Origin: a virus | DNA: 64,000 nt | IMG/VR virus record: IMGVR_UViG_3300010970_000150 | Location: 1 to 64,000 of that record | Reading direction: 5' to 3' (one strand) | Shown: positions 3,403 to 48,127 of the stretch, piece after piece | Layout of the letters: each line of letters begins with the position of its first letter | How positions within the stretch are numbered: position 1 is the stretch's first letter | Notes under the pieces: generated by a model | Databases searched by the model: none | Told to the model about the DNA's origin: nothing | Seen by the model: only the letters and a program-made list of their open reading frames with translations | Position numbers and translations under genes: made by a program

Positions 3403-3417
3403 CAACTCATAAACTTT

Positions 3418-26210: not shown

Positions 26211-26933
26211 TTAGAAGGGAACTTCGTCTTGGGATTCAGATTCAGGTTCACCATTCTGCTTCAACGCCCAGAGAGCCTGTGCAGACTTCTTGAGCGACTG
26301 GTCTTTAGCACCGACCTTACCAGTCTTTTCCCACGGCTTAGGCTCCCACTTGTTGGCCCAATAGTCGAGGTCGCTATCAGGAAGGGCAGACAAGGCAGTA
26401 CCCTTGTTCTTGCCAAACGGAACAGCGAGTTCGAAATCGATTCCAACGCTACCAGTGTGGGGTGCGACAAATGTAGCGATAGGAGCCGACTTCTTTACAG
26501 CCACAGGAGCAGAGGCAGTCTTAACTACTCGGTCTGCTTCACAGTCATCATCAGTAGTAGCCAGACCCCCAATAGAAGCCAAGCAATAGCGTCTCAGGTA
26601 GGTCAGGATAGCACCAGCCTGTTGACCAGTAGCCTGTTCACCAACAGGAACAATGCAGGAGGATTCGATGCTCGTGCCATTCTTATGGGCGATGATGGTC
26701 TTGATGCCGATGCCATTGTCGTGGTACTCAGAGGTTGGCAGTTGAATCACAGTAAGGCCGTGCTTGTGGAACAGGGGCTTAAGGTAAGACAAATGAGCCG
26801 ACAGGCTGGCAAATTTCGACTTAAAATGCGGATTGAAGTCATCCGCAACAATGTCCTTCGTCTCAGAATGCACATTTCCTAGTGCGATGTACAACTCAGA
26901 CAGGTTAGGCTTAGGAATAGTATCGTCTTGCAT
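26211..26933 (-). CDS. ERF-family single-strand annealing protein
   Basis: Carries the ERF signature: NPHFKSKFASLSAHLSYLKP, KHGLTVIQLP, GTSIESS and TGQQAGAILTYLRRYCLASI, followed by an acidic TDDDCEAD. These proteins anneal complementary single strands in phage recombination and concatemer formation. The C-terminal third (from about residue 165) is a Lys/Trp-rich segment likely to bind DNA. The start at MQDD (26933) leaves a clean gap to the upstream gene; 26978 and 27020 are alternative starts. It works with the RecE-like nuclease and RusA encoded in the same operon. Confidence 0.85.
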   Translation of the reverse strand: MQDDTIPKPNLSELYIALGNVHSETKDIVADDFNPHFKSKFASLSAHLSYLKPLFHKHGLTVIQLPTSEYHDNGIGIKTIIAHKNGTSIESSCIVPVGEQATGQQAGAILTYLRRYCLASIGGLATTDDDCEADRVVKTASAPVAVKKSAPIATFVAPHTGSVGIDFELAVPFGKNKGTALSALPDSDLDYWANKWEPKPWEKTGKVGAKDQSLKKSAQALWALKQNGEPESESQDEVPF

Positions 26934-26955
26934 ATCGATTCGTTTCCAGAGTTCG

Positions 26956-27171
26956 TTACTTCTTGCTAACCACTTCATCGTTAACCTTTCGGCTATTGGA
27001 TGCATTGATTCGAACAGCATTGCCTTGGTCGTTGATGAACGAATAGTACAGATAGTGCTTAACCTTTACAGGCTTCAGCAATCGTGCCATTCGACCATCT
27101 GGGAGTACGATGTACTTCCGTGCGTTATTGACCTCAATGATAGAGGTCGTTTCGTTATTTTGGGTTTCCAT
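26956..27171 (-). CDS. Small conserved-looking protein upstream of ERF
   Basis: A 71-residue protein started at the ATG at 27169-27171. A longer frame from 27348 would overlap the loader gene fully and is rejected. The sequence ARKYIVLPDGRMARLL and HYLYYSFINDQGNAV suggests a small beta protein. No function recognised. It lies between the helicase loader and ERF genes. Confidence 0.5.
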   Translation of the reverse strand: METQNNETTSIIEVNNARKYIVLPDGRMARLLKPVKVKHYLYYSFINDQGNAVRINASNSRKVNDEVVSKK

Positions 27172-27187: not shown

Positions 27188-27874
27188 TTACTGAGCGGCT
27201 CCGTAGATTCGGAAGTAGTCCTTAAGTCTGCGAATGATTGCAGAGCCTGTCTCTCCGTTTGAGAATCTGTCGGATAGTCCGCTTCCGTTGTAGTTGGTTG
27301 TGATGATGGTTGAGCGTTTATTGGAAGTCCGCTCGTCAATGATTGCAAACAAATCGCTCTCCATACGCTGAGTCAAGCGTTCTTTACCTAAATCGTCAAT
27401 GACCAGCAGAGAGCAAGCCACGAGGCGTTCAATCACCTCTCCGTGGTTCTGGTTTGCGAAACCTTCCTCAATTTGCTGTTCCAGTTTCCGCATCGTCAGG
27501 AAATTGCTGTGCTTCGGGTAGAAGTGGAGCCAGCCCTTGTTGAACATAGCCCAAGCAGTGCGTGTCTTGCCAGTTCCAGTGACTCCGTGCAACAGGACGC
27601 TATGCTCAGGATGGTACTCCTTCAGTGCGGTCTGCATCTGCGGAGCCAACTTGCTTTCCACAGTGTCGAGAAAGCCAATCGGAGTGGAAGGATGGGTTGA
27701 TTTGAAGCACCAGTTGTGCTTGTCAAAAACATCCTTGTAGATGTACGGATACTCGTGATGCTCCTTGGTCGGGAAGCAGTTCAAGCACACGGACACGAAT
27801 GGTTTGAACTTCTGGCTGTTAGCGTCCCACACAGGGGTCGCATCAGACTTGCAGTGAATGCACTTAGAAGCCAT
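27188..27874 (-). CDS. DnaC-like helicase loader (AAA+ ATPase)
   Basis: A 228-residue protein with an N-terminal four-Cys zinc motif (C5, C8, C30, C33), Walker A GVTGTGKT (97-104), Walker B LLVIDDLG (D160, D161), then a sensor segment TTNYN. The layout is that of DnaC/phage P-type loaders, which place the replicative helicase on an opened origin. It overlaps the putative initiator gene by 11 bases. No phage helicase or polymerase is encoded in the window, so it probably loads host DnaB. Confidence 0.85.
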   Translation of the reverse strand: MASKCIHCKSDATPVWDANSQKFKPFVSVCLNCFPTKEHHEYPYIYKDVFDKHNWCFKSTHPSTPIGFLDTVESKLAPQMQTALKEYHPEHSVLLHGVTGTGKTRTAWAMFNKGWLHFYPKHSNFLTMRKLEQQIEEGFANQNHGEVIERLVACSLLVIDDLGKERLTQRMESDLFAIIDERTSNKRSTIITTNYNGSGLSDRFSNGETGSAIIRRLKDYFRIYGAAQ

Positions 27875-28493
27875 TGGCGTGGTCGTTATTGGTTAGCGTT
27901 TTGGTTTTGTTGGCGGTTACTACAAAAAGACCCTGCCAGCCGAAAGCAATGCTTTTGTTGATTGAAGCAATTGCGTTTATTTCGTTTGCCCAAGAACCAA
28001 GCATTGTCAACTGCTCCTGTTGCGTCATCGCTGACAAGGGCTTCTTGATTTGCTTTCGATAATCAATCCATTTGTCCCAAGCCGTCTTGAATGCTTCTGC
28101 GTAAGGAAGGGTTAGGGTAGGTTTATCCTCTTTTTTATCTGCTGTTCTATCTGTAGGAAGTCTACTTCCCCCCCTGCGGGAAATAGGTTTCCCCCTCCCT
28201 AGGAAATCTGTAGCACCCACCAAGGCTTGCTTCTCCACTGTCCGTAGGATGCGTTTGCCGTTCACTTCGATGCGGACTACCAACTGGAAGTCGATAAGGG
28301 TTTTGAGGACATTCTTGACCTGTCTGTCGCTCAGTTGCAGGGTCTGTGCAAGGTAGCCGTTAGAGGCGTAACAGCCCTCTTCATTGTCGAGGGCGTTCAC
28401 GATTCCGTACACCACCTTCTCGGTGATGGTAAGGGTTTCCATCTGGAAGACCTCTACAGGAATCCAGACACCAGTGAATGATGGCTTGCTCAC
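27864..28493 (-). CDS. Replication initiator (winged-helix, lambda O-like organisation)
   Basis: A 209-residue protein. Residues 18-78 form a winged-helix domain (ITEKVVYGIVNAL, GYLAQTLQLSDRQVKNVLKTL, then a beta wing with VVRIEVNGKR). Residues about 93-110 are a Gly/Arg-rich linker, and the C-terminus carries a helical AWDKWIDYRKQI domain. The linker DNA holds the G-rich repeats also found at 36153-36207, just as lambda O carries its iterons inside the gene. It lies beside the helicase loader gene. The function as origin-binding initiator is inferred from domain plan, partner and repeats. Confidence 0.7.
   Translation of the reverse strand: MSKPSFTGVWIPVEVFQMETLTITEKVVYGIVNALDNEEGCYASNGYLAQTLQLSDRQVKNVLKTLIDFQLVVRIEVNGKRILRTVEKQALVGATDFLGRGKPISRRGGSRLPTDRTADKKEDKPTLTLPYAEAFKTAWDKWIDYRKQIKKPLSAMTQQEQLTMLGSWANEINAIASINKSIAFGWQGLFVVTANKTKTLTNNDHANGF
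28168..28218 (-). repeat. Iteron-like G-rich repeats inside the initiator gene
   Basis: On the minus strand, two units of the form ATTTCC-NNN-G-run: GATTTCCTAGGGAGGGGG (28208-28191) and CTATTTCCCGCAGGGGGGG (28186-28168). The ATTTCC cores are 23 bases apart. The stretch 28218-28200 reads GGGTGCTACAGATTTCCTA and matches 17 of 19 bases with 36189-36207. This is a candidate initiator-binding site and part of the replication origin. Confidence 0.65.
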
Positions 28494-29284
28494 AGGCTTC
28501 CGTAATTGATGTTCAGGTCACCAAGGACACCGCCCTGTGGGCCTTCCCAGAAGTCGCTCTGCTTGCTATCACCATAGTCGTGCAACTTCATCTTAACTGC
28601 GTTCATCCACTTGAACAGTTCTGTAGGCTCAATCTCCCAAAACGCACAGGTGCTAGGCTCAGAAGTTTCAACTGCAATAAATTCAAACCTGAACGGCCTA
28701 CGATATACTTCTTCAGCCAGTAGACAATAAAAGCCAGCCTGTACCCAGTACATTCTGTCCTTCACTGTGTACCTAAACTTTTCACCAGATACATCATCAC
28801 AACTTTTGATGTCCCTGATGATGCCGTTTTCAATGTCAATGATATCAAGACGAGCCTTGCAATCGTGACCGAACAACTTGCCAAGCAGGACAACCTCAGT
28901 GCGGACATCAGCCTGTGCCGCCATCCTCTGCCAGTCAGAATTCTGCTTGATGGCGTTGATAGCCCGAAGCACCACGGCCTCTGAATCGGCCTTCAGGATG
29001 GTCTTGCCAGCCGCACCCTCCTCAAAGGCTTGCTTGATGGCCTTACCCTCCTTGGTACGACCATCCACATCGGGATAGTAGGCGATGGTCTTGAGGTAAT
29101 CCTGAGGCTGGAGCATAGCCGTGTGGATGGCAGTGCCAATCCTCATAGCCTCGGTTGTCTCAACCTCCTTCTGGTTACGGAAGTGATAGGGTGAGCGGAA
29201 GAACGCCTTGAAGCGGGAAGCATTCAGGGCGGGAAGAGAGCGGTATTCGCTCTCCGACATAGTGCTGACTAGTGCGTTATTCAT
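28490..29284 (-). CDS. PD-(D/E)XK exonuclease, RecE C-terminal-like (DUF3799)
   Basis: A 264-residue protein resembling the putative exodeoxyribonuclease VIII nuclease domain: LNASRFKAFFRSPYHF, GTAIHTAML, a CKARLDIID strand and IIRDIKSCDD supplying the D...D-x-K core, then a Gln-containing helix (YWVQAGFYCLLAEE). It would degrade one strand of duplex ends to give 3-prime overhangs for the ERF protein. The stop overlaps the initiator start by four bases. Confidence 0.8.
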   Translation of the reverse strand: MNNALVSTMSESEYRSLPALNASRFKAFFRSPYHFRNQKEVETTEAMRIGTAIHTAMLQPQDYLKTIAYYPDVDGRTKEGKAIKQAFEEGAAGKTILKADSEAVVLRAINAIKQNSDWQRMAAQADVRTEVVLLGKLFGHDCKARLDIIDIENGIIRDIKSCDDVSGEKFRYTVKDRMYWVQAGFYCLLAEEVYRRPFRFEFIAVETSEPSTCAFWEIEPTELFKWMNAVKMKLHDYGDSKQSDFWEGPQGGVLGDLNINYGSL

Positions 29285-29727
29285 TGGTTGTTTTGGTCGA
29301 AGTACATTTGCACAGATGGCTCCGTGCTCCAGTACTTCTCAATCTGTATGCTCCAGATTTGGGCATCGTCAAGCCAGTATCCGATTCTGGTAAATTCATC
29401 CAGAATGACCTTGACAACATTGTCCACATCTGGTTTGGTGGTTTTTACAAGTGTTTTACACTTGCTAATTTTTGGTAAAAGATACTTTGGGGGGCTATAG
29501 TACAGCCTGATGTAGACCCTAAGTGGCCCCTCGCAGGGCTTATCAGGCTTTCCAGCCACCATATACGGCCTAGCAAGGTCTACCCAAGCGGATACCTTGT
29601 TGTTTTTCATCTTGCCTACAAACATTTTGCCGCTCTTAGACCTAAGAACCCTCAAATTGGCCTGATGAGTGCTTTTGGGCGGCTCGATGGGCATAACTAA
29701 CCAACATTGACTTGTAGGCAAATTCAT
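29281..29727 (-). CDS. RusA-like Holliday junction resolvase
   Basis: A 148-residue protein with the RusA hallmark KPDVDNVVKVILDEF followed by GYWLDDAQI, which supplies the acidic active-site residues. A Lys/Arg-rich N-terminal half and a YYSPPKYL loop also fit. It resolves branched recombination or replication intermediates before packaging. It is the first gene of the leftward operon; the divergent plus-strand gene begins only 16 bases away. Confidence 0.85.
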   Translation of the reverse strand: MNLPTSQCWLVMPIEPPKSTHQANLRVLRSKSGKMFVGKMKNNKVSAWVDLARPYMVAGKPDKPCEGPLRVYIRLYYSPPKYLLPKISKCKTLVKTTKPDVDNVVKVILDEFTRIGYWLDDAQIWSIQIEKYWSTEPSVQMYFDQNNQ

Positions 29728-29735
29728 AATATCGT
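29707..29735 (+). promoter_or_regulatory. Possible promoter inside rusA for the divergent gene
   Basis: TTGACT at 29707-29712, 17 bases, then TATCGT at 29730-29735. Initiation would fall at or next to the ATG at 29744, giving a leaderless or nearly leaderless message. The -10 box is poor, so this is tentative. Confidence 0.3.
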
Positions 29736-29743
29736 TGTTTTAT

Positions 29744-30199
29744 ATGGAATCTGAATCCAAATACGAAAGAGTCAAGAATGATAAAAAATCAACAACTCTT
29801 GAAAAACTTGACGCTAAAAAGAAGGAAGAAATTGTGTGGATGACCGAACAGGGCCATACACAGAAGGAAATTGAGGAAAAAGTTGAGGTTTCCAGTCACA
29901 CTGTGGTCGCTGTACGCCAAGATATGGGCAGTCAGGAGTCCTTAGACCTAAAGACTTACAAGGCCAAGACTTCTGACCTGTTCAAGTCCATCATTATGAA
30001 GGGTGCTCTCAGGCTTGATACTGAGATTGATAAACTGCCTATCAGCCAGATGCCTTTGGCCCTAGCAATTCTCATCGATAAGGTACAGACCCTTAATGAC
30101 CAGCCTGTCGTGGTCACTGAGCATCGCCTTAGAATCAAGCACGAAGATATTAATAAAATGATTTCGGGCGAGATTGTTGACCTTCCAGATTCAAAGTAA
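29744..30199 (+). CDS. Helix-turn-helix protein, possible small terminase-like regulator
   Basis: A 151-residue protein started at the ATG at 29744; an in-frame TTG at 29735 is less likely. The N-terminal half holds a helix-turn-helix (MTEQGHTQKEIEEKVEVSSHTVVAVRQ). The C-terminal half (ISQMPLALAILIDKVQTLND) resembles the oligomerisation helix of phage HTH proteins sometimes called small terminase-like. It could be the small terminase, although it lies 9 kb from the large subunit, or a transcription regulator of the divergent region. Confidence 0.55.
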   Translation: MESESKYERVKNDKKSTTLEKLDAKKKEEIVWMTEQGHTQKEIEEKVEVSSHTVVAVRQDMGSQESLDLKTYKAKTSDLFKSIIMKGALRLDTEIDKLPISQMPLALAILIDKVQTLNDQPVVVTEHRLRIKHEDINKMISGEIVDLPDSK

Positions 30200-30310
30200 G
30201 GCAATTTTATCCCAAAACGATTTTGTCAAAAATCTTATAGGGTTAGGTCTTAACAGGGTAACAGAAGGAAGGTTTGGTGTCGGTTTGGCTCGTGCGTTGC
30301 AGATTTTTGA

Positions 30311-30339
30311 TTTCTCGACAGCGGTTATCGGGTATAATG
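30311..30339 (+). promoter_or_regulatory. Early promoter P1
   Basis: TTTCTCGACA (30311-30320), 12 bases, then TATAATG (30333-30339). The same arrangement and spacing occur at 35351-35379, including ATCGG before and ATGT after the -10 box. The TATAAT box is perfect but no good -35 lies at 17 bases, so the conserved upstream element may be a non-standard -35 or an activator site. It drives the gene at 30480. Confidence 0.6.
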
Positions 30340-30412
30340 GATGTAAGCAAGTAGTGTAGGTCGCACCGATTCGGGTTCGGGTTCCACGATGGGACTCACC
30401 GAAACATCTGCG

Positions 30413-30442
30413 TCACTCGTTAACCCAAATCAAAACGAGTGA
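30413..30442 (+). other. Leader hairpin downstream of P1
   Basis: TCACTCGTT (30413-30421) pairs perfectly with AACGAGTGA (30434-30442) across a 12-base A/C-rich loop. It lies in the untranslated leader between P1 and the ATG at 30480. The P2 leader has a similar hairpin with an A/C-rich loop. It may stabilise the message or bind a regulator. The rest of 30200-30479 shows no other clear signal. Confidence 0.45.
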
Positions 30443-30479
30443 GTGGAAGGTGCGTACTGAAACGAAAGCGATATACGAT

Positions 30480-31004
30480 ATGGAAACTAAAACTAACCTG
30501 ATGGAACTGCTGGCGAAGATTCAGTGCGTGGAAGTGTTCACCTTCCACCCCTTCAACTACTCCGCTCCGATTATGGGCGAAGACAAGTACGAGGGCGAAG
30601 GCAAGTTCCTCAAAGCGTTCAACGCTATCCTGCGGACGAGCGGTCAGCCGTTCATCTACATCACCGAAAAAGATGAGAGCGGCTGGTGCTATCGCCGCTC
30701 CATCACTGCATATAAGTTCGTGCAGTTGCTCGGCCTTGAAATCCTCAGCACTGGTCTGAAAGGTTTCACCGCACGGATGTTCGCCAACGAAAACGGAATG
30801 GGCAAAGATGCCGAAGCCGTCATCGCTGACAACACCAAGGAAGTCTACGCTTCCTTCGAAGATGGCGAACGCTACTGGAAGAACCTCGTGGCTCAGGAAC
30901 AGGAAATCGCTGATGCCAAGGCTCGCAAGGATGCGATGGAAGCCGCCATCAAGAAGTATAACGAGACGAAGGGTGGCGAAGAGAACATCGCTCTGGACGC
31001 TTAA
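30480..31004 (+). CDS. Early protein of unknown function under P1
   Basis: A 174-residue protein started at the ATG at 30480; a GTG at 30450 would extend into the leader. No family recognised. The C-terminal third is a charged helix (QEQEIADAKARKDAMEAAIKK). It is preceded by its own promoter and leader hairpin and followed by a very strong terminator, so it is a single-gene transcript. Its codons are GC-richer than those of the internal late genes, suggesting high early expression. Confidence 0.55.
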   Translation: METKTNLMELLAKIQCVEVFTFHPFNYSAPIMGEDKYEGEGKFLKAFNAILRTSGQPFIYITEKDESGWCYRRSITAYKFVQLLGLEILSTGLKGFTARMFANENGMGKDAEAVIADNTKEVYASFEDGERYWKNLVAQEQEIADAKARKDAMEAAIKKYNETKGGEENIALDA

Positions 31005-31028
31005 CACGAACCAGTAACACCGACTGTG

Positions 31029-31071
31029 GAGAGGAGAGGCGAGCAATCGCTTCTCCTCTCTGCTTTTATTT
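31029..31071 (+). terminator. Strong rho-independent terminator with GCAA loop
   Basis: A 14 bp stem (31029-31042 with 31047-31060, one G-U pair) is closed by a GCAA tetraloop and followed by TGCTTTTATTT. It ends the P1 transcript just before the gene at 31093. Confidence 0.85.
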
Positions 31072-31092
31072 CCTCCCAAACACATACCATAT

Positions 31093-31869
31093 ATGGACGA
31101 CACAGACTGGAAGAAGACCAAACAATTGTTCAACTTCGACAACGCAAAGACGAAGAAGGGCAATCACCTCGGATACAGCACTGCTATCCTCTACCTCGCA
31201 TCATCCGACTTGTCGGGTGTTGTGAATGTATGCAAACACGCCACGAAGGAATGTCGTGAAGACTGTCTCGTGTTCGCTGGCCTCGCAGGAATCTTTCCGA
31301 AGATTAATGCGGCTCGTGTTCACAAGACCAAGTGGATGCATATGTACCCAGATACTTTCTGGGCGAAGGTTGACCGAGAGATTCTCAATCACGAGAACCT
31401 CTGCTATCGCAACACGAAGCGATTGAAGCGTAAGTTGAAGCCTTGCGTTCGTATCAACGGCACATCGGATATCTGGAACGAGCATATGCAAACGCTTATG
31501 CATCGTTACCCTGATGTGCAGTTCTACGATTACAGTAAGGACTTCAATCGCATCGTTGACTGGACGATGGACAAACTGCCGCTCAACTATCATCTCACCT
31601 ATTCGTATGGTGGTGGAAACACCAACAACGCAAAGTGGTGTCTCGATAACGGAGTGAATGTTGCTGTCGTCTTTGATGTGAAGCGTGGCAAGCCGTTGCC
31701 AGTAACGCATTGGGGATACGATGTAGTCGATGGTGACACGCACGACCTTCGCTTCCTCAACAGGCCGTATGCTGGTCAAGGCTCAGTCATCGGACTCCGT
31801 GCGAAAGGCAAAGCATCTGGCAAAGAAGGACGAAGCAATTCGTTCATCCAGAAAGGCGTTGCCTCGTGA
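31093..31869 (+). CDS. GP88-like conserved phage protein
   Basis: A 258-residue protein resembling the phage gene product 88 family: FNFDNAKTKKG near the start, AILYLASSD, then a cysteine cluster CKHATKECREDC, INAARVHKTKW, CVRINGTSDI and VQFYDYSKDFNR. The family is widespread in phages, but its role is not established to my knowledge. The Cys cluster suggests a metal site, and the alternating strands and helices suggest a barrel-like fold, both inference. Followed by a GTGA-coupled zinc-ribbon gene. Confidence 0.6.
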   Translation: MDDTDWKKTKQLFNFDNAKTKKGNHLGYSTAILYLASSDLSGVVNVCKHATKECREDCLVFAGLAGIFPKINAARVHKTKWMHMYPDTFWAKVDREILNHENLCYRNTKRLKRKLKPCVRINGTSDIWNEHMQTLMHRYPDVQFYDYSKDFNRIVDWTMDKLPLNYHLTYSYGGGNTNNAKWCLDNGVNVAVVFDVKRGKPLPVTHWGYDVVDGDTHDLRFLNRPYAGQGSVIGLRAKGKASGKEGRSNSFIQKGVAS

Positions 31870-32036
31870 GCGACTGCAACTGCGGCAGTAAGAAGCCAGC
31901 GTACTGGCTCAACGATGGTCACGGAATTCCTCTCTGCAAAGTCTGCGAAGACTGCGAAGAGAAGAAACTCAAACGCTATCGCCCCGATATCCTCGACTCT
32001 TATGAAGCGGAAGAACCTATCGACTCCGATTGGTAA
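31866..32036 (+). CDS. Small zinc-ribbon protein
   Basis: A 56-residue protein starting at GTG in a GTGA overlap with the previous gene. Metal ligands C4-N-C6 and C24-K-V-C27-E-D-C30 are spaced as in a zinc ribbon. The C-terminus is acidic (EAEEPIDSDW). The family is common beside early phage genes but its function is unknown. Followed by a strong terminator. Confidence 0.6.
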   Translation: MSDCNCGSKKPAYWLNDGHGIPLCKVCEDCEEKKLKRYRPDILDSYEAEEPIDSDW

Positions 32037-32050
32037 GAACAGGATTTCTC

Positions 32051-32095
32051 AGTGGGAGGAAGAACACGAAGTTCTTCTTTCCACTTTTCTTTCTC
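32051..32095 (+). terminator. Rho-independent terminator after the GP88-like pair
   Basis: A 15 bp stem (32051-32065 with 32071-32085, two G-U pairs) with loop ACGAA, followed by TTTCTTTCTC. The remaining gap to 32210 is an A/C-rich leader ending in ACGCATATG; no promoter was clear. Confidence 0.8.
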
Positions 32096-32209
32096 AGGCA
32101 ACTGAGGAAACCCAAACCTCCAACAGCGTGAACCCCGCCCAACCTAACAGGGAAGTATCGCTGACGGAGCAAACCGAAACGAAACATAACTAACAAACAC
32201 ACAACGCAT

Positions 32210-33010
32210 ATGAAAAACCTGATTGGTAAAGCCCTCGCTTGGTTCCTCCCTGCGAGCAAAACGGAACACACGCTTCTCGACTTAGAGATGCGTATTATGG
32301 GACTGGAACAGGATGTTCATCACCTCAAAGGTTTGCTTCAAACCGACAGCATCTCGCTGGCTGGTATGAGCAAGCAGAGTCACGATGAGCACTTCCAGAC
32401 CATCGTTCGCAAGTCCGTTGAAGAGTCGTTCGACTTCGATACGCTTGTCGAAGAGGCGATTGAGAATCACGACTTCACCGATAGCGTCAGCGATGCACTC
32501 GATGATGCCATCAGCAATCGTGATTGGGATTACGAACTGCGTGAGGCTATCGACTGGGACAAGGTTGCTGACAAAGTCGTAGGCAAGATTGATTGGTCTG
32601 ATGTTATCAGCGACAACTCGTTGCTGACCTCTGACGATATCGACCTCAATGACCTGATGCTCCAGTCGGAGCAGATGTCCGATGACGATGTGATGAAGCG
32701 TAGCGACCTGAGCGATGAAGTCGTAAACGAGTTGAAGCGTGACTGGTTCACGCAGATGCTCAAAGACGAAGTCAAGGCTCACTTCAAGTCCACGCTGTCT
32801 GAGGCTCGTGAGACTGAGGACGCAAATGTCCGCAACTGCATCGATGACGAAATCGAAATCAAACTCGATACGCTTATCCGTGAGCAGATGACCAGCAAGT
32901 TCGGTGAGCAGTGGGACAACTGGTACAACGAGAACACTCGTCATTGCGTGAAGGTTATCCTCGGTGAGTTCCTCGCCGCCGCTTACGAACAGACCAAGGA
33001 GACTAAGTAA
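32210..33010 (+). CDS. Acidic early protein of unknown function
   Basis: A 266-residue protein, strongly acidic (many Asp/Glu/Ser, few aromatic residues after residue 15). The N-terminus (NLIGKALAWFLP) is a short amphipathic helix. The middle is a row of short Asp-rich helices (DWDYELREAIDWDKV, DWSDVIS) that look like degenerate repeats. Highly acidic phage proteins can mimic DNA, but that is speculation. It has its own A/C-rich leader without Shine-Dalgarno. Confidence 0.5.
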   Translation: MKNLIGKALAWFLPASKTEHTLLDLEMRIMGLEQDVHHLKGLLQTDSISLAGMSKQSHDEHFQTIVRKSVEESFDFDTLVEEAIENHDFTDSVSDALDDAISNRDWDYELREAIDWDKVADKVVGKIDWSDVISDNSLLTSDDIDLNDLMLQSEQMSDDDVMKRSDLSDEVVNELKRDWFTQMLKDEVKAHFKSTLSEARETEDANVRNCIDDEIEIKLDTLIREQMTSKFGEQWDNWYNENTRHCVKVILGEFLAAAYEQTKETK

Positions 33011-33011
33011 T

Positions 33012-33263
33012 ATGTCCAAGGTATCTGAAAAGCGGCTCGCAGAACTCGTCTCTATGTTGGAGATTCCCGAAACCATTCAGCGTGAGGATTATCCTCCTGC
33101 ATCGCTGAGCGGTAGCGGAAACATCTTCATCGACATCGCCGCCGCTTCACGAGCGTGGCGTAAGGTCGATGTTGGCGTATCCAACAGGATTATGAGCGTC
33201 ATCAACGGCAACTGCGAATCCGAACACGAGGTAGACGCTCTCCTCAACCACATTACCCTTTAA
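33012..33263 (+). CDS. Small early protein
   Basis: An 83-residue protein started at the ATG two bases after the preceding stop. A longer frame from 32964 would overlap the previous gene and is rejected. It is helical, with an SGSGNIFIDIAAASRAWRKV segment. No family recognised. Confidence 0.5.
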   Translation: MSKVSEKRLAELVSMLEIPETIQREDYPPASLSGSGNIFIDIAAASRAWRKVDVGVSNRIMSVINGNCESEHEVDALLNHITL

Positions 33264-33365
33264 CCCAGAGTAATTTATTCCGTCCAACAATTTGTGCGAA
33301 AAGCGAAGGGATTGCGTCAGGTTCCAACGCCTAGTAGCACGAAACCAAAAAACACAACCAAAACT

Positions 33366-34307
33366 ATGCTACACAGCATCCAGACAGCCGCTGACCTGTC
33401 TCTAATCCGTCAGCAATACGAGCGTGAAGTAGAAATGCATCACGCCAACAGCCCGAAGGTTACTTCGGGTTCCAACGCCCACAACTATTCCGTTCGCTCT
33501 GTGCCGCTCTACACGGCCAGTGGCGTTCCTGCGAATTGCTGGGGCAATCAGCGGTGCGACAATGGTGTCATCATCGGGAAGACTTCCGATAAGTACGGCA
33601 TCATTCAGAACGATGTGTTCGAACGCACCATCCGCACTGGCTTCGAACAGAATGGTCTGTCGCCTACTGCGTTCCAGTCCATCGTGACTCGCCGTGGTGC
33701 TCGCACTCATATGCAGTTCGACTTCGCCACTGAGAAGGCCGACATCACTCGCAAGGGTGATATCGTTGCGTTGCGAATCACCGCTAAGAACTCGTTTGAC
33801 GGCACTAGCCGCTCTTCGATTTCTGTCGGTGCTCTGCGACTTGTCTGCACGAATGGTATGACATCCTTCCGTGAGGATATGATGTTCTCTGTGCGTCACA
33901 CTTCCAATGTGAACTACGAGTTTGTCAACGATGTCGTGATTCAGGCGATGAGCGAATGGTCTTCGCTTCGCACTGTCTGGCAGAACCTAGCCAACATCCC
34001 GCTCACGCAACAGCAGGGTTGGAACGCTATCGAGAATATGGTGAACCGAGGTTACCTTGGTGCATCTGTTCGCAAGCGTGTCCACGATGTGTGGTCTGTT
34101 CCTAATTACGATGCCGACAAGGCTCGTAACTTGTGGAACTTGTACAACGCTCACACGCAGGTGCTCACCCACCAGTTCAGCGAGCAGAAGTACGAGATGA
34201 CGAACCGCACTTCGTCTCAGGTTCTCCACGCACTGCACCACGCCACCACGAGTCACGATGAGTTCATCAACCTCATCGCCTCTCCTGACGAGGTTCGTAG
34301 CAACTGA
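33366..34307 (+). CDS. DUF932 family protein
   Basis: A 313-residue protein started at the ATG at 33366 after an A/C-rich leader; in-frame upstream starts lie in the untranslated part. The sequence shows the DUF932 plan: an N-terminal strand set, YGIIQNDVFERTI, ISVGALRLVCTNGM and VRHTSN, ending in a helical LHHATTSHDEFINL. Members are common in phages and plasmids and their role is not firmly established. A GCAA-looped hairpin follows. Confidence 0.75.
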   Translation: MLHSIQTAADLSLIRQQYEREVEMHHANSPKVTSGSNAHNYSVRSVPLYTASGVPANCWGNQRCDNGVIIGKTSDKYGIIQNDVFERTIRTGFEQNGLSPTAFQSIVTRRGARTHMQFDFATEKADITRKGDIVALRITAKNSFDGTSRSSISVGALRLVCTNGMTSFREDMMFSVRHTSNVNYEFVNDVVIQAMSEWSSLRTVWQNLANIPLTQQQGWNAIENMVNRGYLGASVRKRVHDVWSVPNYDADKARNLWNLYNAHTQVLTHQFSEQKYEMTNRTSSQVLHALHHATTSHDEFINLIASPDEVRSN

Positions 34308-34314
34308 TAACGCA

Positions 34315-34344
34315 GGGACTCATCATCGCAAGGTGGTGAGTCCC
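34315..34344 (+). terminator. GCAA-looped hairpin after the DUF932 gene
   Basis: A 13 bp stem (34315-34327 with 34332-34344, including G-U pairs) capped by GCAA, the same loop as the terminator at 31029. No U-run follows, so it may attenuate, protect the upstream 3-prime end or mark a processing site rather than fully terminate. Confidence 0.5.
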
Positions 34345-34354
34345 ACCTATCATT

Positions 34355-34555
34355 ATGATTACGATTAACGCAGTGACGCTGACCAACGCACAGTTGGAAG
34401 CACTAATCAAGTTGGTGAATCGTGGCTGGGTATTGGACTACTCATCCATCGTCAAACTTCCCGCAGAGGAGTGCATTATGATTGCTGTCTCTGGCCCTAA
34501 CACTGGTGCGAAGATGTTCTTCGGCATCGAAGCAGACGGATACACGCACTCGTGA
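34355..34555 (+). CDS. Small early protein
   Basis: A 66-residue soluble protein (ITINAVTLTNAQLEALIKLV) of unknown function. Its stop overlaps a GTG start (GTGA), the coupling style repeated through this operon. Confidence 0.5.
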   Translation: MITINAVTLTNAQLEALIKLVNRGWVLDYSSIVKLPAEECIMIAVSGPNTGAKMFFGIEADGYTHS

Positions 34556-35004
34556 GCCTCAACTTCGAATTCGCTGAGGGCATTGACCGCAAGTTGATTG
34601 AGTACACGCAAGCCGATGGTTCGCTCCATTGGCTTCCTCGTGCTCAGTCGTTTGTGTTCTACCAGATGGGATTGCAGTTCGACATCGATGGTGAGATGAC
34701 CGATGCCAAACTTATTGAGTGTGCGAGGCGTATCGCACTGCTCGATATGATGGCTCATCACGCTCACTATTGGGAAGTTGTTGATGGTGTCACCATTGGT
34801 TACCGCCACTCACTCGCTGATGTGGTAACTTACTGGGGACTTACCACCAATGTTTCTCACAAGACGAGAACGCAGTGGGACGCATACTTCCAGAAGTGTT
34901 GGATTAACGCTAACAACAGGCGTTTCGATTCCGATGTGAAGGAAGTAATCGCTCGATTGTCCAAGCGTGTGCCATTCAGCACACATAAGAACACCGAGTC
35001 GTGA
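34552..35004 (+). CDS. Hypothetical early protein
   Basis: A 150-residue protein beginning at GTG overlapping the previous stop. Aromatic-rich, with IALLDMMAHHAHYWEVVDG in the middle and a basic C-terminus. No family recognised. Coupled by GTGA to the next zinc-finger-like gene. Confidence 0.5.
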   Translation: MSLNFEFAEGIDRKLIEYTQADGSLHWLPRAQSFVFYQMGLQFDIDGEMTDAKLIECARRIALLDMMAHHAHYWEVVDGVTIGYRHSLADVVTYWGLTTNVSHKTRTQWDAYFQKCWINANNRRFDSDVKEVIARLSKRVPFSTHKNTES

Positions 35005-35189
35005 GCGTATTCCCTCGCAAGCCAAGAGCCAAGGCTGGGTACAGATGCTGTGCTATGTGTCGCAAGACTAAGAAGAACGAATCGTTCCATCTTCTTAGCA
35101 CTAAGACCAAGTACCTGTCATCATACTGCAAGCCTTGTATGTCCATCTATATGCGTAGCAGGTATCTCTATCATAAGAAGAATGCCTAA
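35001..35189 (+). CDS. Small Cys4 zinc-finger-like protein
   Basis: A 62-residue basic protein with two CxxC pairs (CAMC and CKPC) about 25 residues apart and a Tyr/Arg-rich end (YMRSRYLYHKK). This resembles the metal knuckle of HNH/endonuclease VII-type proteins or small zinc fingers, but no His-Asn active site follows, so a nuclease role is not supported. Confidence 0.5.
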   Translation: MSVFPRKPRAKAGYRCCAMCRKTKKNESFHLLSTKTKYLSSYCKPCMSIYMRSRYLYHKKNA

Positions 35190-35253
35190 CGCAGTAGAGG
35201 TCGCAGTAGTTACGCTGTGGCTTATCGCTATGATTCGAATCTCACGCAAGTGA
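35182..35253 (+). CDS. 23-residue hydrophobic peptide
   Basis: Frame MPNAVEVAVVTLWLIAMIRISRK, one short membrane-type helix with a basic end. It overlaps the previous gene by eight bases. Size, coupling and hydrophobicity suggest a small membrane peptide, but coding cannot be proven from this alone. Confidence 0.35.
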   Translation: MPNAVEVAVVTLWLIAMIRISRK

Positions 35254-35308
35254 GTTTCAATTAAGGCAAAAATCTTGCGTGCCATCAGGTTTTACTAAGC
35301 ACACAAGC

Positions 35309-35356
35309 AGTGGGTAGCAGAACATCAAACACTCTGCTATCCACTTTCACTTTCTC
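35309..35356 (+). terminator. Hairpin terminator immediately before P2
   Basis: A 13 bp stem (35309-35321 with 35333-35345, one G-U pair) with an 11-base loop, followed by TTCACTTTC. It ends the operon from 32210 and insulates P2, whose conserved element starts six bases later. Confidence 0.7.
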
Positions 35357-35379
35357 GACAACAATCATCGGATATAATG
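35351..35379 (+). promoter_or_regulatory. Early promoter P2
   Basis: TTTCTCGACA (35351-35360), 12 bases, TATAATG (35373-35379), then AATGT. Same elements and spacing as P1 at 30311-30339. It drives the gene at 35463. Confidence 0.6.
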
Positions 35380-35418
35380 AATGTGTACCCGCTACGGCAC
35401 TGACGCACGAGCGAGTAC

Positions 35419-35443
35419 CCGCACGAACCAACAACAAGTGCGG
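35419..35443 (+). other. Leader hairpin downstream of P2
   Basis: CCGCAC (35419-35424) pairs with GTGCGG (35438-35443) across an A/C-rich 13-base loop. Same position and loop style as the hairpin after P1. Confidence 0.4.
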
Positions 35444-35462
35444 TGACAGTAACGACACGCAT

Positions 35463-35870
35463 ATGAAACAGAAAACCAAGAAGCAAATCGAAACGCTCAA
35501 CGCTCAGGCGTTCATCACCACCATCAACTCGCTCGCCGCTATCGCGGTGAAGTCGAAGGTGAAGGAGAAGACGAAGGGCGGCAAGGTGAAGCACATCATC
35601 AAGCCCACGCTTGATGAAGCGAAGGCGTGGCTGATGGTGAGCGAGTCACTGCTCGCAAGCGTCATCGCCACTGCGGCCAAAGCGAAAGCCGATGCGAAGG
35701 ACGCTGATGAAGGCCACGCATTCAAGGGCGAAGTCGGAGTCACCTGCGGCAAGGTGAAGTCGCTCAGCGTTAACGACAAGAAACTGATGGCGATTGCATC
35801 GGCTCAGATGAAGCGTGCCGTGAATCTCAAATCATTCGCTCCGCTCTTCGCCGCTCACATTTCCAAGTGA
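35463..35870 (+). CDS. Lys/Ala-rich early protein under P2
   Basis: A 135-residue protein from the ATG at 35463, very rich in Lys and Ala (VKSKVKEKTKGGKVKHIIK, ATAAKAKADAKDADEG). Low complexity and basic charge suggest nucleic-acid binding. A dedicated promoter and leader suggest strong early expression. No family recognised. Confidence 0.55.
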   Translation: MKQKTKKQIETLNAQAFITTINSLAAIAVKSKVKEKTKGGKVKHIIKPTLDEAKAWLMVSESLLASVIATAAKAKADAKDADEGHAFKGEVGVTCGKVKSLSVNDKKLMAIASAQMKRAVNLKSFAPLFAAHISK

Positions 35871-35926
35871 GTGTTATCGCACTGGCATTGCTGCTGATTG
35901 TGATGCGTTGCTTAGACAGTAAGTGA
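35867..35926 (+). CDS. 19-residue hydrophobic peptide
   Basis: Frame MSVIALALLLIVMRCLDSK starting at GTG in a GTGA overlap with the preceding stop. A single hydrophobic helix. Coupling resembles that of the real genes in this operon; evidence is otherwise slight. Confidence 0.3.
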   Translation: MSVIALALLLIVMRCLDSK

Positions 35927-35978
35927 TGCGTTGATACAGTCACGGCATTGTGAGAAAGAACTCTCGCTCTCCACTCAG

Positions 35979-36207
35979 GTGGGGGGCGGGGGTTCTCCTC
36001 ACTTTTTGTCCACCCTCCTTTACGGATTACAACACACACATTATATTTGCAAAAGACATATAAGTCTGTGTAGGAAGGGGGTTATTAGGGGGATAGTGGG
36101 TTATGTATGTCAAGCGTTATCTGTTAGTTTAGCGTTTTGGGTAGGGGGAAATGTATTTCATAGGGGGGTGAAGTGTATTTCCTAGGGGGGGTGCTATGGA
36201 TTTCCTA
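35979..36207 (+). repeat. G-run repeat region, candidate replication origin
   Basis: Part of the 413-base gap between 35871 and 36283, which holds only one doubtful small gene. Plus-strand G-runs of five or more occur at about 35981-35986, 35988-35992, 36077-36081, 36088-36092, 36144-36148, 36163-36168 and 36185-36191. The last three units share an ATTTC-based core: GTATTTCATAGGGGGG at 36153, GTATTTCCTAGGGGGGG at 36175, and GGATTTCCTA at 36198, spaced 22 and 23 bases. The same units lie in the initiator gene (28168-28218) in opposite orientation. Iterons with two-turn spacing fit an initiator-bound origin; the G-runs could also fold as quadruplexes or mark a packaging site. Confidence 0.6.
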
Positions 36208-36250
36208 CATATAGAATAGTCTCATAGAATAGTACATCGATACAATAGGG

Positions 36251-36277
36251 TTGACATAAGCATTCATTGAGTAATCT
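36251..36277 (+). promoter_or_regulatory. Possible promoter before the pre-packaging operon
   Basis: TTGACA at 36251-36256 and TAATCT at 36272-36277 with a 15-base spacer, shorter than ideal. The ATG at 36284 follows seven bases after the -10-like box. Placement at the start of a new plus-strand gene run supports it. Confidence 0.35.
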
Positions 36278-36283
36278 GAGGGA

Positions 36284-36769
36284 ATGAACATCAAAGAAAG
36301 CGACCTGATTGCGAAGAATGGCTGGCTGAAGTCCGATTTGAAGGCGGTTCGCCACGATGCCATCGAGTTTGAGGGTATGCGGCTCTGGTTTCGTGAGGAA
36401 TCCAAGAAGCCTAAGCATCTCCAGACCATTTGGTGGACTGATGTTGGCGTTATGTATCTGACTGAGTACTTCAGAGTTAAGAAAGAAATGGAAACTCCGA
36501 CTCCTATGGAGGAAAATAGGGTTATGTCCAAGGAAGAGTTTGCTAAATCGGTAAATAACTCTAAGTGGGTAGGCCGTATTGTTAGAAATGGCTACAAAAA
36601 CTTCAACACAGTTATGGTCGAACACGACTCTGGGTTTATGCTTCTAGTTAATTGTCGTAACAATAAAACTCTTCCGAAGAACTCGTATGTTGAAGTTGAC
36701 ACCAAGAACAATCGTCACACCATTCGCAAATCCGCATTTAAATCCTATGAAAAAGCCAAGCAAGCCTAA
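36284..36769 (+). CDS. Hypothetical protein, first gene after the candidate origin
   Basis: A 161-residue protein. The first half contains Trp-rich segments (NGWLKSDLKAVRHDAIEF, TIWWTDVGVMYLTEYFRV). The second half looks like a small beta-barrel (WVGRIVRNGYKNFNTVMV, LLVNCRNNKTLPKNSYVEV) such as an OB or SH3-like fold. Nucleic-acid binding is plausible but unproven. Overlaps the next gene by 23 bases. Confidence 0.5.
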   Translation: MNIKESDLIAKNGWLKSDLKAVRHDAIEFEGMRLWFREESKKPKHLQTIWWTDVGVMYLTEYFRVKKEMETPTPMEENRVMSKEEFAKSVNNSKWVGRIVRNGYKNFNTVMVEHDSGFMLLVNCRNNKTLPKNSYVEVDTKNNRHTIRKSAFKSYEKAKQA

Positions 36770-37584: not shown

Positions 37585-37659
37585 GCCACAGTAGCACAAT
37601 GGTTGTGCAACAGTTTTGTAAACTGTAGGTTGTCGGTTCAAGTCCGACCTGCGGCCCCA
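37585..37659 (+). tRNA. tRNA-Thr (TGT)
   Basis: A cloverleaf with acceptor GCCACAG/CTGCGGC (one A-C mismatch), D stem GCAC/GTGC, anticodon stem ACAGT/ACTGT with loop TTTGTAA, so anticodon TGT, and T arm GTCGG-TTCAAGT-CCGAC. CCA appears to be encoded at 657-659 of the 37 kb block. It reads ACA. The acceptor mismatch makes it slightly imperfect but it is probably functional. Confidence 0.85.
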
Positions 37660-37663: not shown

Positions 37664-38044
37664 ATGGAAGAAGAATGGAAGCCAGTACCAATTGAGCAAT
37701 TTAAGGGCTTGTACGAGATTTCAAGCCTAGGGAGGCTCAGGGCTTGCCCTAAGACCACAAGTGACGGCAGAAGGCTTCCTGAGCGGCTTGTTAAGCCTAC
37801 TGTAATCAACAGTGGGTATCTTCAGTTCAAGTTGCACAACAATAAGTTTAGGTTTAATGTAAACGCACATAAACTTGTTGCAATTACTTTTGGACTTATA
37901 TACTGGAACGAACATTCCAATTCTAATTTACAAATTAACCACATTGACGGCAATAAGCACAACAATGCGGTTTCTAACCTTGAAGCGTGTACACCTAGTG
38001 AAAACCTTCAACACGCTTGGAGAACTGGACTAAGAAAAAACTAA
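37664..38044 (+). CDS. HNH endonuclease with NUMOD4 motif
   Basis: A 126-residue protein. The N-terminus WKPVPIEQFKGLYEISSLGR is the NUMOD4 DNA-binding motif. The HNH core reads AHKLVAITF, then NHIDGNKHNNAVSNLE. This is the free-standing homing endonuclease type that cuts and spreads to unmodified relatives. It starts four bases after the tRNA-Thr and lies upstream of the terminase. HNH proteins near terminases can also assist packaging, but the NUMOD4 form favours a mobile gene. Confidence 0.88.
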   Translation: MEEEWKPVPIEQFKGLYEISSLGRLRACPKTTSDGRRLPERLVKPTVINSGYLQFKLHNNKFRFNVNAHKLVAITFGLIYWNEHSNSNLQINHIDGNKHNNAVSNLEACTPSENLQHAWRTGLRKN

Positions 38045-38045: not shown

Positions 38046-39323
38046 ATGGCTGAACCTATTGACCTTGACGAAATCTTTTCACCTTATGCCCTAGGACAAT
38101 CTAGGGAAAAAATGAAAGGAAGAGACAATTCCTCTGTAATTGATATTGTAAAAGATGCATTTAAAGAAGGCAGAGGGGGCTATTTGCTTGGAGGAGCAGG
38201 TGTGGCTACAGTAGGCGTTGGTGTCAAAAAGGCTTGGGATAAATCTCTTAAATCCAGTTTGGCGATGGTTCAGGATGCGGCTAAGGCTGAAGCCGAAGCA
38301 GTTGCAAAAGCCAAAGATGCTGGATTCAGAGTAAGACCTGTTACCTTGAATAAACCATTGGTTGGCACTATGTCTGGTGCTACTTCTCAAGGTGTTGGTC
38401 TTCCTGTTGCTGAAGCAGAACAACTTGCATTAGCAAAAGATATTACAAGAAGTAAATGGCTTCGTCCGTTTGGCCTTGGTCAATATGCTGATTCTGCACT
38501 GACTCCTAAACTTGAAATCAATCCTAGGGTGCTTAGAATTGCTGGACAGGGTGAACAAACTCTTGGCCTTACCCAAATGACAATGGCAGATGCTCCAAGG
38601 TCGTTTGTTGTTCCAGCCAGCAAGATTCCTGAAATTGTTGAAGGAACTACTAAAGAAAATGTCCCTGCTACATCGCCGTCTGTAGGTCGCACTATGGCGG
38701 CTGATATGCCTGCCCCTAGGTCTGGCCTTCCCTACAACAATTACCAAAGAGGTGCTAGAGCATTGTATAATATGCAGTATGGAAATGCTGGTATTCCTCT
38801 TAACTCTGCTTCAAATATTGGAAAGGCTTTGTTTAAAAGCGGTGCTGGATTACAGGCTATTATGGAAGGTACAACTGCCGCATATGATACTTGGCCTGAA
38901 TTTCTTGGAGGCAGTGGAAATAATGTTTACGGAAGAACTGTTGAAGAACTAAGAAGGGGTGTTAACCCTGAACTAGACCCATTTGCTTATAATGTAGTTG
39001 CTCCTTTTGGTGGAGGTCTTGCCACTACAAAGCGTTGGGGATATGGTGCGGCTAATGCGGCACTTGCTGGAGCACCAATGATGTACAACATCATTCAGGA
39101 AAACAGAGAAATGGATGCAAAAACTCAAGCAAGCCTTGAAAAAGCATTTGCTGAAAAGCCAGAACAATTTAATCCAGACGAACTTGAAAGACAAAGACTT
39201 AGAAGAATTGAACTGGGCGTTGCTACTTCTAGTGATGAATTTAGATTAAATACACCAGAAGCACATCAAGCATATAAAGCAAAAGTAAAAGAACTTGAAG
39301 AAAAGAAAAAGTCTAAGAAGTGA
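38046..39323 (+). CDS. 425-residue hypothetical protein before the terminase
   Basis: No family recognised. Residues 40-60 form a Gly-rich hydrophobic stretch (GGYLLGGAGVATVGVGV), followed by Ala/Lys helices. A second hydrophobic Ala/Gly segment lies near 325-350, and the C-terminus is highly charged (VKELEEKKKSKK). The plan suggests a membrane-active or virion-associated protein. Its stop overlaps the terminase GTG start by four bases, so it is translated with the packaging genes. Confidence 0.55.
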   Translation: MAEPIDLDEIFSPYALGQSREKMKGRDNSSVIDIVKDAFKEGRGGYLLGGAGVATVGVGVKKAWDKSLKSSLAMVQDAAKAEAEAVAKAKDAGFRVRPVTLNKPLVGTMSGATSQGVGLPVAEAEQLALAKDITRSKWLRPFGLGQYADSALTPKLEINPRVLRIAGQGEQTLGLTQMTMADAPRSFVVPASKIPEIVEGTTKENVPATSPSVGRTMAADMPAPRSGLPYNNYQRGARALYNMQYGNAGIPLNSASNIGKALFKSGAGLQAIMEGTTAAYDTWPEFLGGSGNNVYGRTVEELRRGVNPELDPFAYNVVAPFGGGLATTKRWGYGAANAALAGAPMMYNIIQENREMDAKTQASLEKAFAEKPEQFNPDELERQRLRRIELGVATSSDEFRLNTPEAHQAYKAKVKELEEKKKSKK

Positions 39324-40927
39324 TTGATTCTGAATTCAAGCCAACGCCTCATCCAGTCATCAAGATGCCAGACATCAAGATGTTGGTTGAGCGTTTTGGT
39401 ATTGAAAAAACAGCCCAAATTCTTGAACTAAGAGAAGACAAAATTCTTGCAGAGCAGGTAGACCCTTATCGTCACGGATTTGAGCCTGACCACTGGAAAG
39501 ACGCTGACAAAATTATCAAAGATAAACAGGAACTGCTTGTTCTTGGTGGAAATCGTGCTGGCAAGACTGAATGGATGGCTAAAAGAGTCATTCAAACGCT
39601 TATCAACAAGGAAAAGTCAATGGTTTGGTGTCTACATACGACTCAAAAATCCAGCATTCAGATGCAACAGAATGTTGTCTGGAAGTATATGCCTCCAGAA
39701 TTAAAAAATTGCAAAAAGACCAAGGTAACAAACATCGCATACAGCCAAAAAAACGGATTTTCTGAAGAATCTTTCATTCTTCCCAATGGTTCTCAGTGCG
39801 TGTTTATGAATTATGCTCAGAAACGAGATGTCATTGAAGGTGGCGAGTGTGATTTGGTATGGTGCGATGAACTTGTGCCTATGGATTGGGTCGAAACCCT
39901 CCGCTATCGACTGGTTACACGAAGAGGAAAACTGGTAATCACTTTTACGCCTGTTGCTGGGTACTCACAAGTCGTTAAGGAATTTGTGTCTGGTTCTAAA
40001 TTTACAAAAACGCTTCCTGCTACTGTCCTAGACCAGAATGTTGTTCATTGTAATGGTGCTCCAAGAGGGCATATGCCATATACTGCTGAAAGCCATCGTG
40101 GAAATGCTGGGGTTATGTGGTTTCACTCTCAACTTAACCCCTATAACCCATTTGATGAACTGATTAAGACTTTGCAAGGTAAAAACCTGTATGAGAAGAA
40201 AATCAGAGCCTATGGATGGGCAGATAATACTGTAGGCAACCAATTTCCAAGATTTGGAGAGCATAACATCATCAAAGATAGCGATGTACCCTCTGAAGGG
40301 ACTAACTATATGGTAACCGACCCTGCTGGAGCCAGAAACTGGTTTATGCTATGGATGCGGGTCGGAACTGATGGTAATTATTACATTTACAGGGAGTTCC
40401 CAGACATCAGTTATGGCGAATGGGCCTTGCCGTGTGAGAAACCAGATGGCAAGGAAGGTATGGCTCAGCGTAATGGTGCTGGTATGGGTATTGACGATTA
40501 CAAGCGTCTTATCCGTTCCCTAGAGGGGTCAGAGGAGATATTGGAAAGGTATATCGACCCTCGTGCAGGTGCAACACAGGCGGTTGGTCGTGACGGAGGA
40601 ACATCAGTCATTGAACTACTAGACTCAGGCGATGACCCAATGTATTTTGCACCTGCGGCTGGTGTGGCTATCGAACAAGGGGTTGCTATGATTAATGACC
40701 TCCTTGCATATGACATCTGTCAACCGATATCTCCGCTCAACCAGCCAAAACTTTTCGTAACAGACAGTTGCAAGAACCTTATATACTCACTCAAGGAGTG
40801 GACTAACGCAGACGGAGATAAAGGGGCTTCAAAAGACCCTGTTGACTGTTTGCGGTATTTAGTTGTTATGTCTCCTATTCATATTGACCATTCTAAGAAT
40901 CCAGTGAATCAACCCTTTTCATACTAA
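39320..40927 (+). CDS. terL: Terminase large subunit
   Basis: A 535-residue DNA-packaging motor. The ATPase half has Walker A GGNRAGKT (76-83) and Walker B DLVWCDE (178-184, with catalytic E184). The nuclease half has VTDPAGARNW (D334), an IDPRAG segment near 412 and a DPVDCLRYL segment near 509, which provide the acidic cutting residues. Starts at GTG overlapping the preceding stop. No adjacent small terminase is seen; the HTH protein at 29744 is a distant candidate. Joined to the portal gene by TAATG. It is the only terminase in the window although two capsid modules are present. Confidence 0.92.
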   Translation: MIDSEFKPTPHPVIKMPDIKMLVERFGIEKTAQILELREDKILAEQVDPYRHGFEPDHWKDADKIIKDKQELLVLGGNRAGKTEWMAKRVIQTLINKEKSMVWCLHTTQKSSIQMQQNVVWKYMPPELKNCKKTKVTNIAYSQKNGFSEESFILPNGSQCVFMNYAQKRDVIEGGECDLVWCDELVPMDWVETLRYRLVTRRGKLVITFTPVAGYSQVVKEFVSGSKFTKTLPATVLDQNVVHCNGAPRGHMPYTAESHRGNAGVMWFHSQLNPYNPFDELIKTLQGKNLYEKKIRAYGWADNTVGNQFPRFGEHNIIKDSDVPSEGTNYMVTDPAGARNWFMLWMRVGTDGNYYIYREFPDISYGEWALPCEKPDGKEGMAQRNGAGMGIDDYKRLIRSLEGSEEILERYIDPRAGATQAVGRDGGTSVIELLDSGDDPMYFAPAAGVAIEQGVAMINDLLAYDICQPISPLNQPKLFVTDSCKNLIYSLKEWTNADGDKGASKDPVDCLRYLVVMSPIHIDHSKNPVNQPFSY

Positions 40928-47825: not shown

Positions 47826-47840
47826 CAACTCATAAACTTT

Positions 47841-48023: not shown

Positions 48024-48127
48024 TTACCCTTATCCTTTCTACAATCACCTTTCTTGGTGGCGTTTATGTTGGTGCTCGCTGGGCTGACAAACTCAAGGAT
48101 ATCTACTATTCCATCGTATCTAGATAA
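48020..48127 (+). CDS. 35-residue single-pass membrane peptide (B)
   Basis: Base-identical to 3597-3704: one N-terminal hydrophobic helix and a charged tail, coupled on both sides by ATGA and TAATG overlaps. Confidence 0.5.
   Translation: MITLILSTITFLGGVYVGARWADKLKDIYYSIVSR

What the first reader, a model, noticed from the sequence alone, without database searches (positions are those of the whole stretch)
28168..36207. Same G-rich iterons in the initiator gene and in the 36 kb gap
ATTTCC-TAGGGGG-type units with 22-23 bp spacing occur at 36153-36207 (plus strand) and at 28168-28218 (minus strand, inside the putative initiator). 36189-36207 matches 28218-28200 at 17 of 19 bases. Lambda-like phages carry initiator-binding iterons inside the O gene; a second, oppositely oriented set 8 kb away suggests a two-part origin, an origin plus a regulatory or packaging element, or DNA looping.
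Basis: partly seen in the sequence, partly recalled or inferred. Interest (0 to 1): 0.8.

Follow-up and report, generated by a model that had tools for sequence, protein, structure and literature searches.

The report
Phage with two matching replication origins
An uncultured 44-kb bacteriophage carries the same three-unit binding array for its replication initiator twice, once inside the initiator gene and once 8 kb away in front of its late genes; the pair is conserved in 14 related genomes and absent from 13 sister genomes, so it looks like a two-origin replication system of the kind known from phage SPP1.

Summary
Three dyad iterons (14-bp 5-4-5 palindrome plus G-run, 22-23 bp period) lie inside the O-like initiator gene (28156-28215, minus) and in the intergenic gap (36147-36205, plus); each array is followed by an AT-rich, ATAGAAnAG-type tract. 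Searching each genome with its own initiator array finds the gap array as the only other site: score 44-86 against a background of 24-38. It is present in 14 distinct relatives, always on the opposite strand and 7.4-9 kb from O. Thirteen sister genomes with the same in-gene array lack it. Synonymous diversity in O falls threefold over the array, which encodes the initiator's disordered linker. Best reading: two copies of an O-type origin in one phage, working like oriL/oriR of Bacillus phage SPP1 (the second site a late origin or fork barrier). Binding of one initiator to both sites is strongly inferred; what the second site does is not shown. The 88-kb source record is two ~44-kb phages joined through a 2.3-kb identical segment; both arrays belong to one of them. 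Packaging element and G-quadruplex are not supported; late-promoter control is a live rival.

The parts
27864..28493 (-). O-like replication initiator gene, 209 aa: winged-helix N-terminal domain, disordered linker, helical C-terminal domain
28156..28215 (-). In-gene iteron array: three 14-bp dyads at 28202-28215, 28179-28192 and 28156-28169 with G-rich linkers
28118..28155 (-). AT-rich tract after the in-gene array (TACAGATAGAACAGCAGATAAAAAAGAGGATAAACC), candidate unwinding element
   Evidence: unwinding inferred
36147..36205 (+). Gap iteron array: three units at 36147-36160, 36169-36182 and 36192-36205 with G-run linkers
36208..36250 (+). AT-rich tract with ATAGAATAG repeats after the gap array, candidate unwinding element
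   Evidence: unwinding inferred
36251..36256 (+). TTGACA conserved in all ten aligned gaps, ahead of the first late ORF; possible -35 of a late promoter, no clear -10
36284..36769 (+). First ORF right of the gap, 161 aa, no family match
35957..35996 (+). Terminator-like hairpin with T-run at the left side of the gap
27188..27874 (-). DnaC-like helicase loader, downstream neighbour of the initiator gene
28490..29284 (-). Exonuclease (DUF3799 / exonuclease VIII-like)
29281..29727 (-). RusA-like Holliday junction resolvase
26211..27020 (-). Erf-like single-strand annealing protein
39320..40927 (+). Large terminase subunit, about 3 kb right of the gap array; backbone marker

Best explanation
Phage A of this record has two copies of one O-type replication origin. 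Shown: each copy is three iterons (a 14-bp 5-4-5 dyad, degenerate in some units, plus a G-run, period 22-23 bp) followed by an AT-rich tract; one copy lies in the initiator gene and encodes the initiator's disordered linker, the other in the intergenic gap before the late genes, in opposite orientation, so that the two AT-rich sides point away from each other. Inferred: O dimers bind both arrays. The in-gene copy starts early theta replication with the adjacent DnaC-like loader. The gap copy acts as a second origin, or as an initiator-bound fork barrier from which the phage's recombination proteins (exonuclease, Erf annealing protein, RusA resolvase) start concatemer synthesis, as proposed for oriL and oriR of phage SPP1. 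Within this, I put one initiator binding both arrays at about 0.85.
For: Self-search with each genome's own O array gives the gap as the sole second site in all ten A-clade genomes tested (44-82 against 28-34) and in further loci (44-86 against 24-32), always on the opposite strand. The array is among the best conserved parts of the gap, and its AT-rich follower is conserved too. O-gene synonymous diversity drops to 0.15 over the array. The flank of the last dyad agrees between the two arrays in 13 of 13 genomes (TA or C-type), including L083, whose O groups with TA genomes. Replication and recombination genes next to O: loader, exonuclease, Erf, RusA. SPP1 has the same plan: 44-kb genome, oriL inside gene 38, oriR intergenic, both made of direct repeats plus an AT-rich unwinding element, about 13 kb apart (PMC6316719; PMC3485210).
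Against: No binding, replication or read-depth data. Whole-array similarity between a genome's two arrays is not above what kinship predicts (diagonal mean 45.8, near relatives 47.0). In the gap the left half-sites are often degenerate. One-array sisters keep exonuclease and Erf, with endonuclease VII in place of RusA, so a second array is not needed for concatemer formation in this group. GC skew does not discriminate.
Confidence: 0.6

Rival explanations
1. The gap array is an operator: initiator bound there activates or represses the adjacent late promoter (TTGACA at 36251-36256), tying late transcription to initiator level or to genome copy number. It is not used as an origin.
For: The array lies about 45 bp upstream of a TTGACA conserved in ten of ten gaps and about 80 bp upstream of the first late ORF. 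The domain is a winged helix, common in transcription factors.
Against: The AT-rich ATAGAATAG tract that follows the array resembles the one after the in-gene origin, which an operator does not need. No convincing -10 follows the TTGACA. Sisters without the array keep the same gene order.
Confidence: 0.2
2. The gap array is a copy-number or incompatibility control: it titrates the initiator or pairs with the in-gene array through initiator bridges (handcuffing or looping over 8 kb) to shut off early theta replication.
For: Iteron plasmids use extra iterons this way (general knowledge). Opposite orientation and a steady 7.4-9 kb distance would allow pairing.
Against: The conserved AT-rich tract is not needed for titration. 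Distance varies by more than 1 kb between genomes. Thirteen sister genomes do without it.
Confidence: 0.13
3. The second array is a by-product of assembly: it belongs to another phage joined in this 88-kb record.
For: The record does join two phage genomes through a 2,311-bp identical stretch.
Against: Single-genome relatives, one of them (G008) with a 123-bp terminal repeat, carry both arrays in one genome at the same spacing.
Confidence: 0.01

Closest known systems
Bacillus phage SPP1 oriL/oriR with initiator gp38 (G38P)
   Same: About 44 kb genome; one origin inside the initiator gene, a second with the same kind of repeats plus AT-rich region in an intergenic stretch of the late region; helicase loader, exonuclease, annealing protein, Holliday junction resolvase (PMC6316719, PMC3485210)
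   Different: About 8 kb apart here against ~13 kb; initiator kinship to gp38 not tested; SPP1 was not in the collections, so repeats and orientation were not compared; no experiment here
Phage lambda O protein and ori-lambda
   Same: Iterons inside the O gene with dyad units (ATCCCTCAAAACGAGGGA), 20-24 bp period, followed by an A-rich tract; the neighbour gene P is a replication protein (PMC7466680)
   Different: Lambda has four iterons; here three per array, G-run linkers and a second array. A second array in lambda was not searched for here
Phage P4 ori/crr (from memory, a lead only)
   Same: Two distant cis sites with the same initiator-binding repeats
   Different: P4 uses the large alpha primase-helicase; no homology tested and no paper read here
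Single-array sister phages (B half of this record, G011-G013, G018-G026)
   Same: O gene with in-gene dyad array; same O and terminase orientation
   Different: No second array anywhere between O and the terminase gene

Membership tests
O-type (lambda-like) in-gene replication origin | O-like initiator with N-terminal DNA-binding domain, linker and C-terminal domain | tested here: met
   phrog_678 E 6e-16, HTH_36 E 2e-7, AF2 model with two domains and a disordered linker
O-type (lambda-like) in-gene replication origin | Dyad iterons inside the initiator gene under DNA-level constraint | tested here: met
   86 of 114 units with 4-5 of 5 arm pairs against 13.5% of controls; pS 0.15 against 0.48
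O-type (lambda-like) in-gene replication origin | AT-rich tract next to the iterons | tested here: met
O-type (lambda-like) in-gene replication origin | Initiator binds the iterons and opens the DNA | not testable with these tools
   needs protein
SPP1-type dual origin (oriL/oriR) | Second array of the same repeats at a distant intergenic site | tested here: met
SPP1-type dual origin (oriL/oriR) | AT-rich region at the second site too | tested here: met
   conserved ATAGAATAG tract; unwinding itself not tested
SPP1-type dual origin (oriL/oriR) | Initiator homologous to gp38 | not tested
   SPP1 record not in the collections
SPP1-type dual origin (oriL/oriR) | Fork stalling at, or initiation from, the second site | not testable with these tools
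   needs infection experiments
G-quadruplex element | Four G3+ runs with loops of 1-7 | tested here: not met
   none at either array, also not with loops of 1-12

The most novel reading that the evidence does not exclude
The initiator itself is the late-gene switch: by filling the gap array, which becomes more abundant as the genome replicates, O activates or times the adjacent late promoter, so that one protein and one motif couple origin firing to late transcription.
Probability: 0.15. Interest if true: 0.7.

Novelty: new member of a known kind. Interest (0 to 1): 0.5.

Why it matters
Two initiator-bound origins in one phage genome are documented for SPP1, and the fork-barrier role of the second site there is still a proposed model. 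Here a large group of uncultured phages divides into genomes with and without the second array while O-terminase orientation is kept. This natural comparison would let the role of a second origin be tested between close relatives.

Tried and rejected
Packaging element: nothing supports it, and the array has the same unit and AT-rich follower as the in-gene array. G-quadruplex: no canonical motif, and several relatives have C-runs instead of G-runs on the same strand. Assembly artefact: rejected by single-genome relatives. Array-by-array covariation: inconclusive beyond kinship except for the terminal flank. GC skew: minimum near 6.8 kb, not informative and confounded by gene direction. Rfam: only a tRNA in 27-38.5 kb. 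Solved structures by sequence: nothing convincing; by fold: weak winged-helix and plasmid-initiator matches, none at E below 0.001. Cultured relatives: no DNA match for O and only an irrelevant short match for the gap array; best large terminase match 30% to Phage C75C1, whose short initiator gene shows no such array by eye; a distant O-like gene in Pseudomonas phage Cruim01 has in-gene CCTATTCGGAAAA repeats. Hosts: the genome collection gave only weak partial matches. SPP1 could not be fetched as a positive control.

Full report
Source. The window is part of an 88,287-bp viral record with a 55-bp terminal repeat, so it assembled as a circle. It holds two complete, diverged phage genomes head to tail (A about 5.3-49.7 kb, B the rest). 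They share a 3.6-kb segment at 91% identity that contains a 2,311-bp identical stretch (3031 and 47454); elsewhere only patches align, at about 71-88%. Relatives are single genomes with at most one large terminase gene each; three have 123-127-bp terminal repeats at 40.2, 41.1 and 44.2 kb. G001 (43.2 kb, large terminase 99% identical to A) carries A-type head and tail genes on one contig. So the natural unit is a 40-46-kb phage, and both arrays of the finding belong to phage A.

Initiator. The 209-aa protein at 27864-28493 matches O-like replication initiators (phrog_678 E 6e-16) and HTH_36. Next to it are a DnaC-like loader, an exonuclease, a RusA resolvase and an Erf annealing protein. The AF2 model (mean pLDDT 68.6) has a winged-helix part up to about residue 92, a disordered stretch 93-125 and a helical C-terminal domain. 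The disordered stretch is what the in-gene array (codons 91-112) and its AT-rich tract encode.

In-gene array. Units are 14-bp dyads (5-4-5), for example GGAAG-TAGA-CTTCC. Over 38 initiator genes, 86 of 114 units have 4 or 5 of 5 arm positions complementary, against 13.5% at random positions with the same freedom. The arm sequence changes on both sides together (GGAAG/CTTCC, GGCAA/TTGCC, TGCGG/CCGCA, TGCAA/TTGCA, CGAAG/CTTCG). Lambda iterons are dyads too. Synonymous diversity among 14 O genes is 0.15 over the array and 0.48 elsewhere, which shows constraint on the DNA itself.

Gap array. 36147-36205 holds three units of the same format, on the other strand, followed by CATATAGAATAGTCTCATAGAATAG. 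Each genome was searched with its own in-gene array. The gap was the second-best place in the genome in A, G001, G002, G004, G005, G006, G007, G008, G009 and G010 (44-82, next best 28-34; in G006 the site is split over the contig ends and gives 54 and 42). The same holds in L019, L083, L085 and L086. Distances from O are 7.4-9 kb; the strand is always opposite. Shuffled 44.4-kb genomes give a best score of 31.1 on average, 38 at most. In an alignment of ten gaps the array, the ATAGAATAG tract and a TTGACA ahead of the first late ORF are conserved, with a terminator-like region further left.

Distribution. B, G011, G012 and G013 (whole genomes) and G018-G026 (whole interval from O to the terminase gene) have the in-gene array and no second one. 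By large terminase identity to A the measured genomes separate: 72-99% with the second array, 64-66% without. On the O tree the label needs 2 changes against 11 in shuffles. The C-run initiators (L089, L090, L095, L102, L117) group with A-type O but, where a terminase was found, sit on the one-array backbone. This suggests that initiators were exchanged while the gap array stayed with the late-gene backbone (inference).

Coupling between the arrays. The bases after the last dyad agree in all 13 genomes compared (TA in both or C-type in both), and L083 shows the C-type in both although its O groups with TA genomes. Whole-array scores show no self-preference beyond kinship. This supports one protein reading both sites but does not prove it.

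Mechanism. The plan matches SPP1: a 44-kb genome, oriL inside gene 38, oriR in an intergenic stretch of the late region, both of direct repeats plus an AT-rich unwinding element; gp38 bound at oriR is thought to stall forks and trigger the switch to concatemers (PMC6316719; PMC3485210). I take this as the best model for phage A. Shown here: anatomy, conservation, distribution. Inferred: binding, initiation, fork stalling. The main rival is control of the late promoter by the initiator.

Caution. The one-array phage B also carries exonuclease, Erf and a resolvase of another family (endonuclease VII), so the second array cannot be a general need of this replication mode. The self-search background and the absence calls depend on similarity to each genome's own in-gene array; a second site with a quite different sequence would be missed.

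Noticed in passing
window 3031-5341 and 47454-49764: A 2311-bp identical stretch shared by the two phage halves of the 88-kb circular record; either a figure-eight misassembly or a real cointegrate after recombination between coinfecting phages.
   Followed up: partly
36077-36092 and 36108-36115: GGGGGTTATTAGGGGG followed by TGTCAAGC, conserved in most A-clade gaps and also in phage B (about 81.16-81.21 kb of the record); on the opposite strand it reads TTGACA-N20-TAATAA between C-runs, perhaps a leftward promoter.
   Followed up: partly
L002 about 17255-17340 (81.25-81.34 kb of the record), L092, L096, L142: One-array relatives have at the late gap a TTGAC / CCCCC-TTATGTA-CCCC / CCCCC-type element, in several followed by a CCCCC..GGGGG hairpin, where A-clade phages have the second array.
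   Followed up: no
L089, L090, L095, L102, L117: In these initiator genes the G-runs between dyads are C-runs on the same strand, while the dyads are kept.
   Followed up: partly
29281-29727 against L002:9186-9551: Resolvase swap: RusA-like in phage A, endonuclease VII-like in phage B, both just upstream of the exonuclease gene.
   Followed up: partly
L016/G006 contig end, L010 contig start: Two relatives' contigs break inside the G-runs of the late gap; sequencing dropout or a physical end.
   Followed up: no
10443-20978 and 55752-63512: Giant ORFs of 3511 and 2586 aa among the late genes of each phage; the first 1000 residues of the former have no Pfam match.
   Followed up: no
37585-37659, 37664-38044: tRNA-Thr directly followed by a NUMOD4/HNH homing-endonuclease-like ORF.
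   Followed up: no
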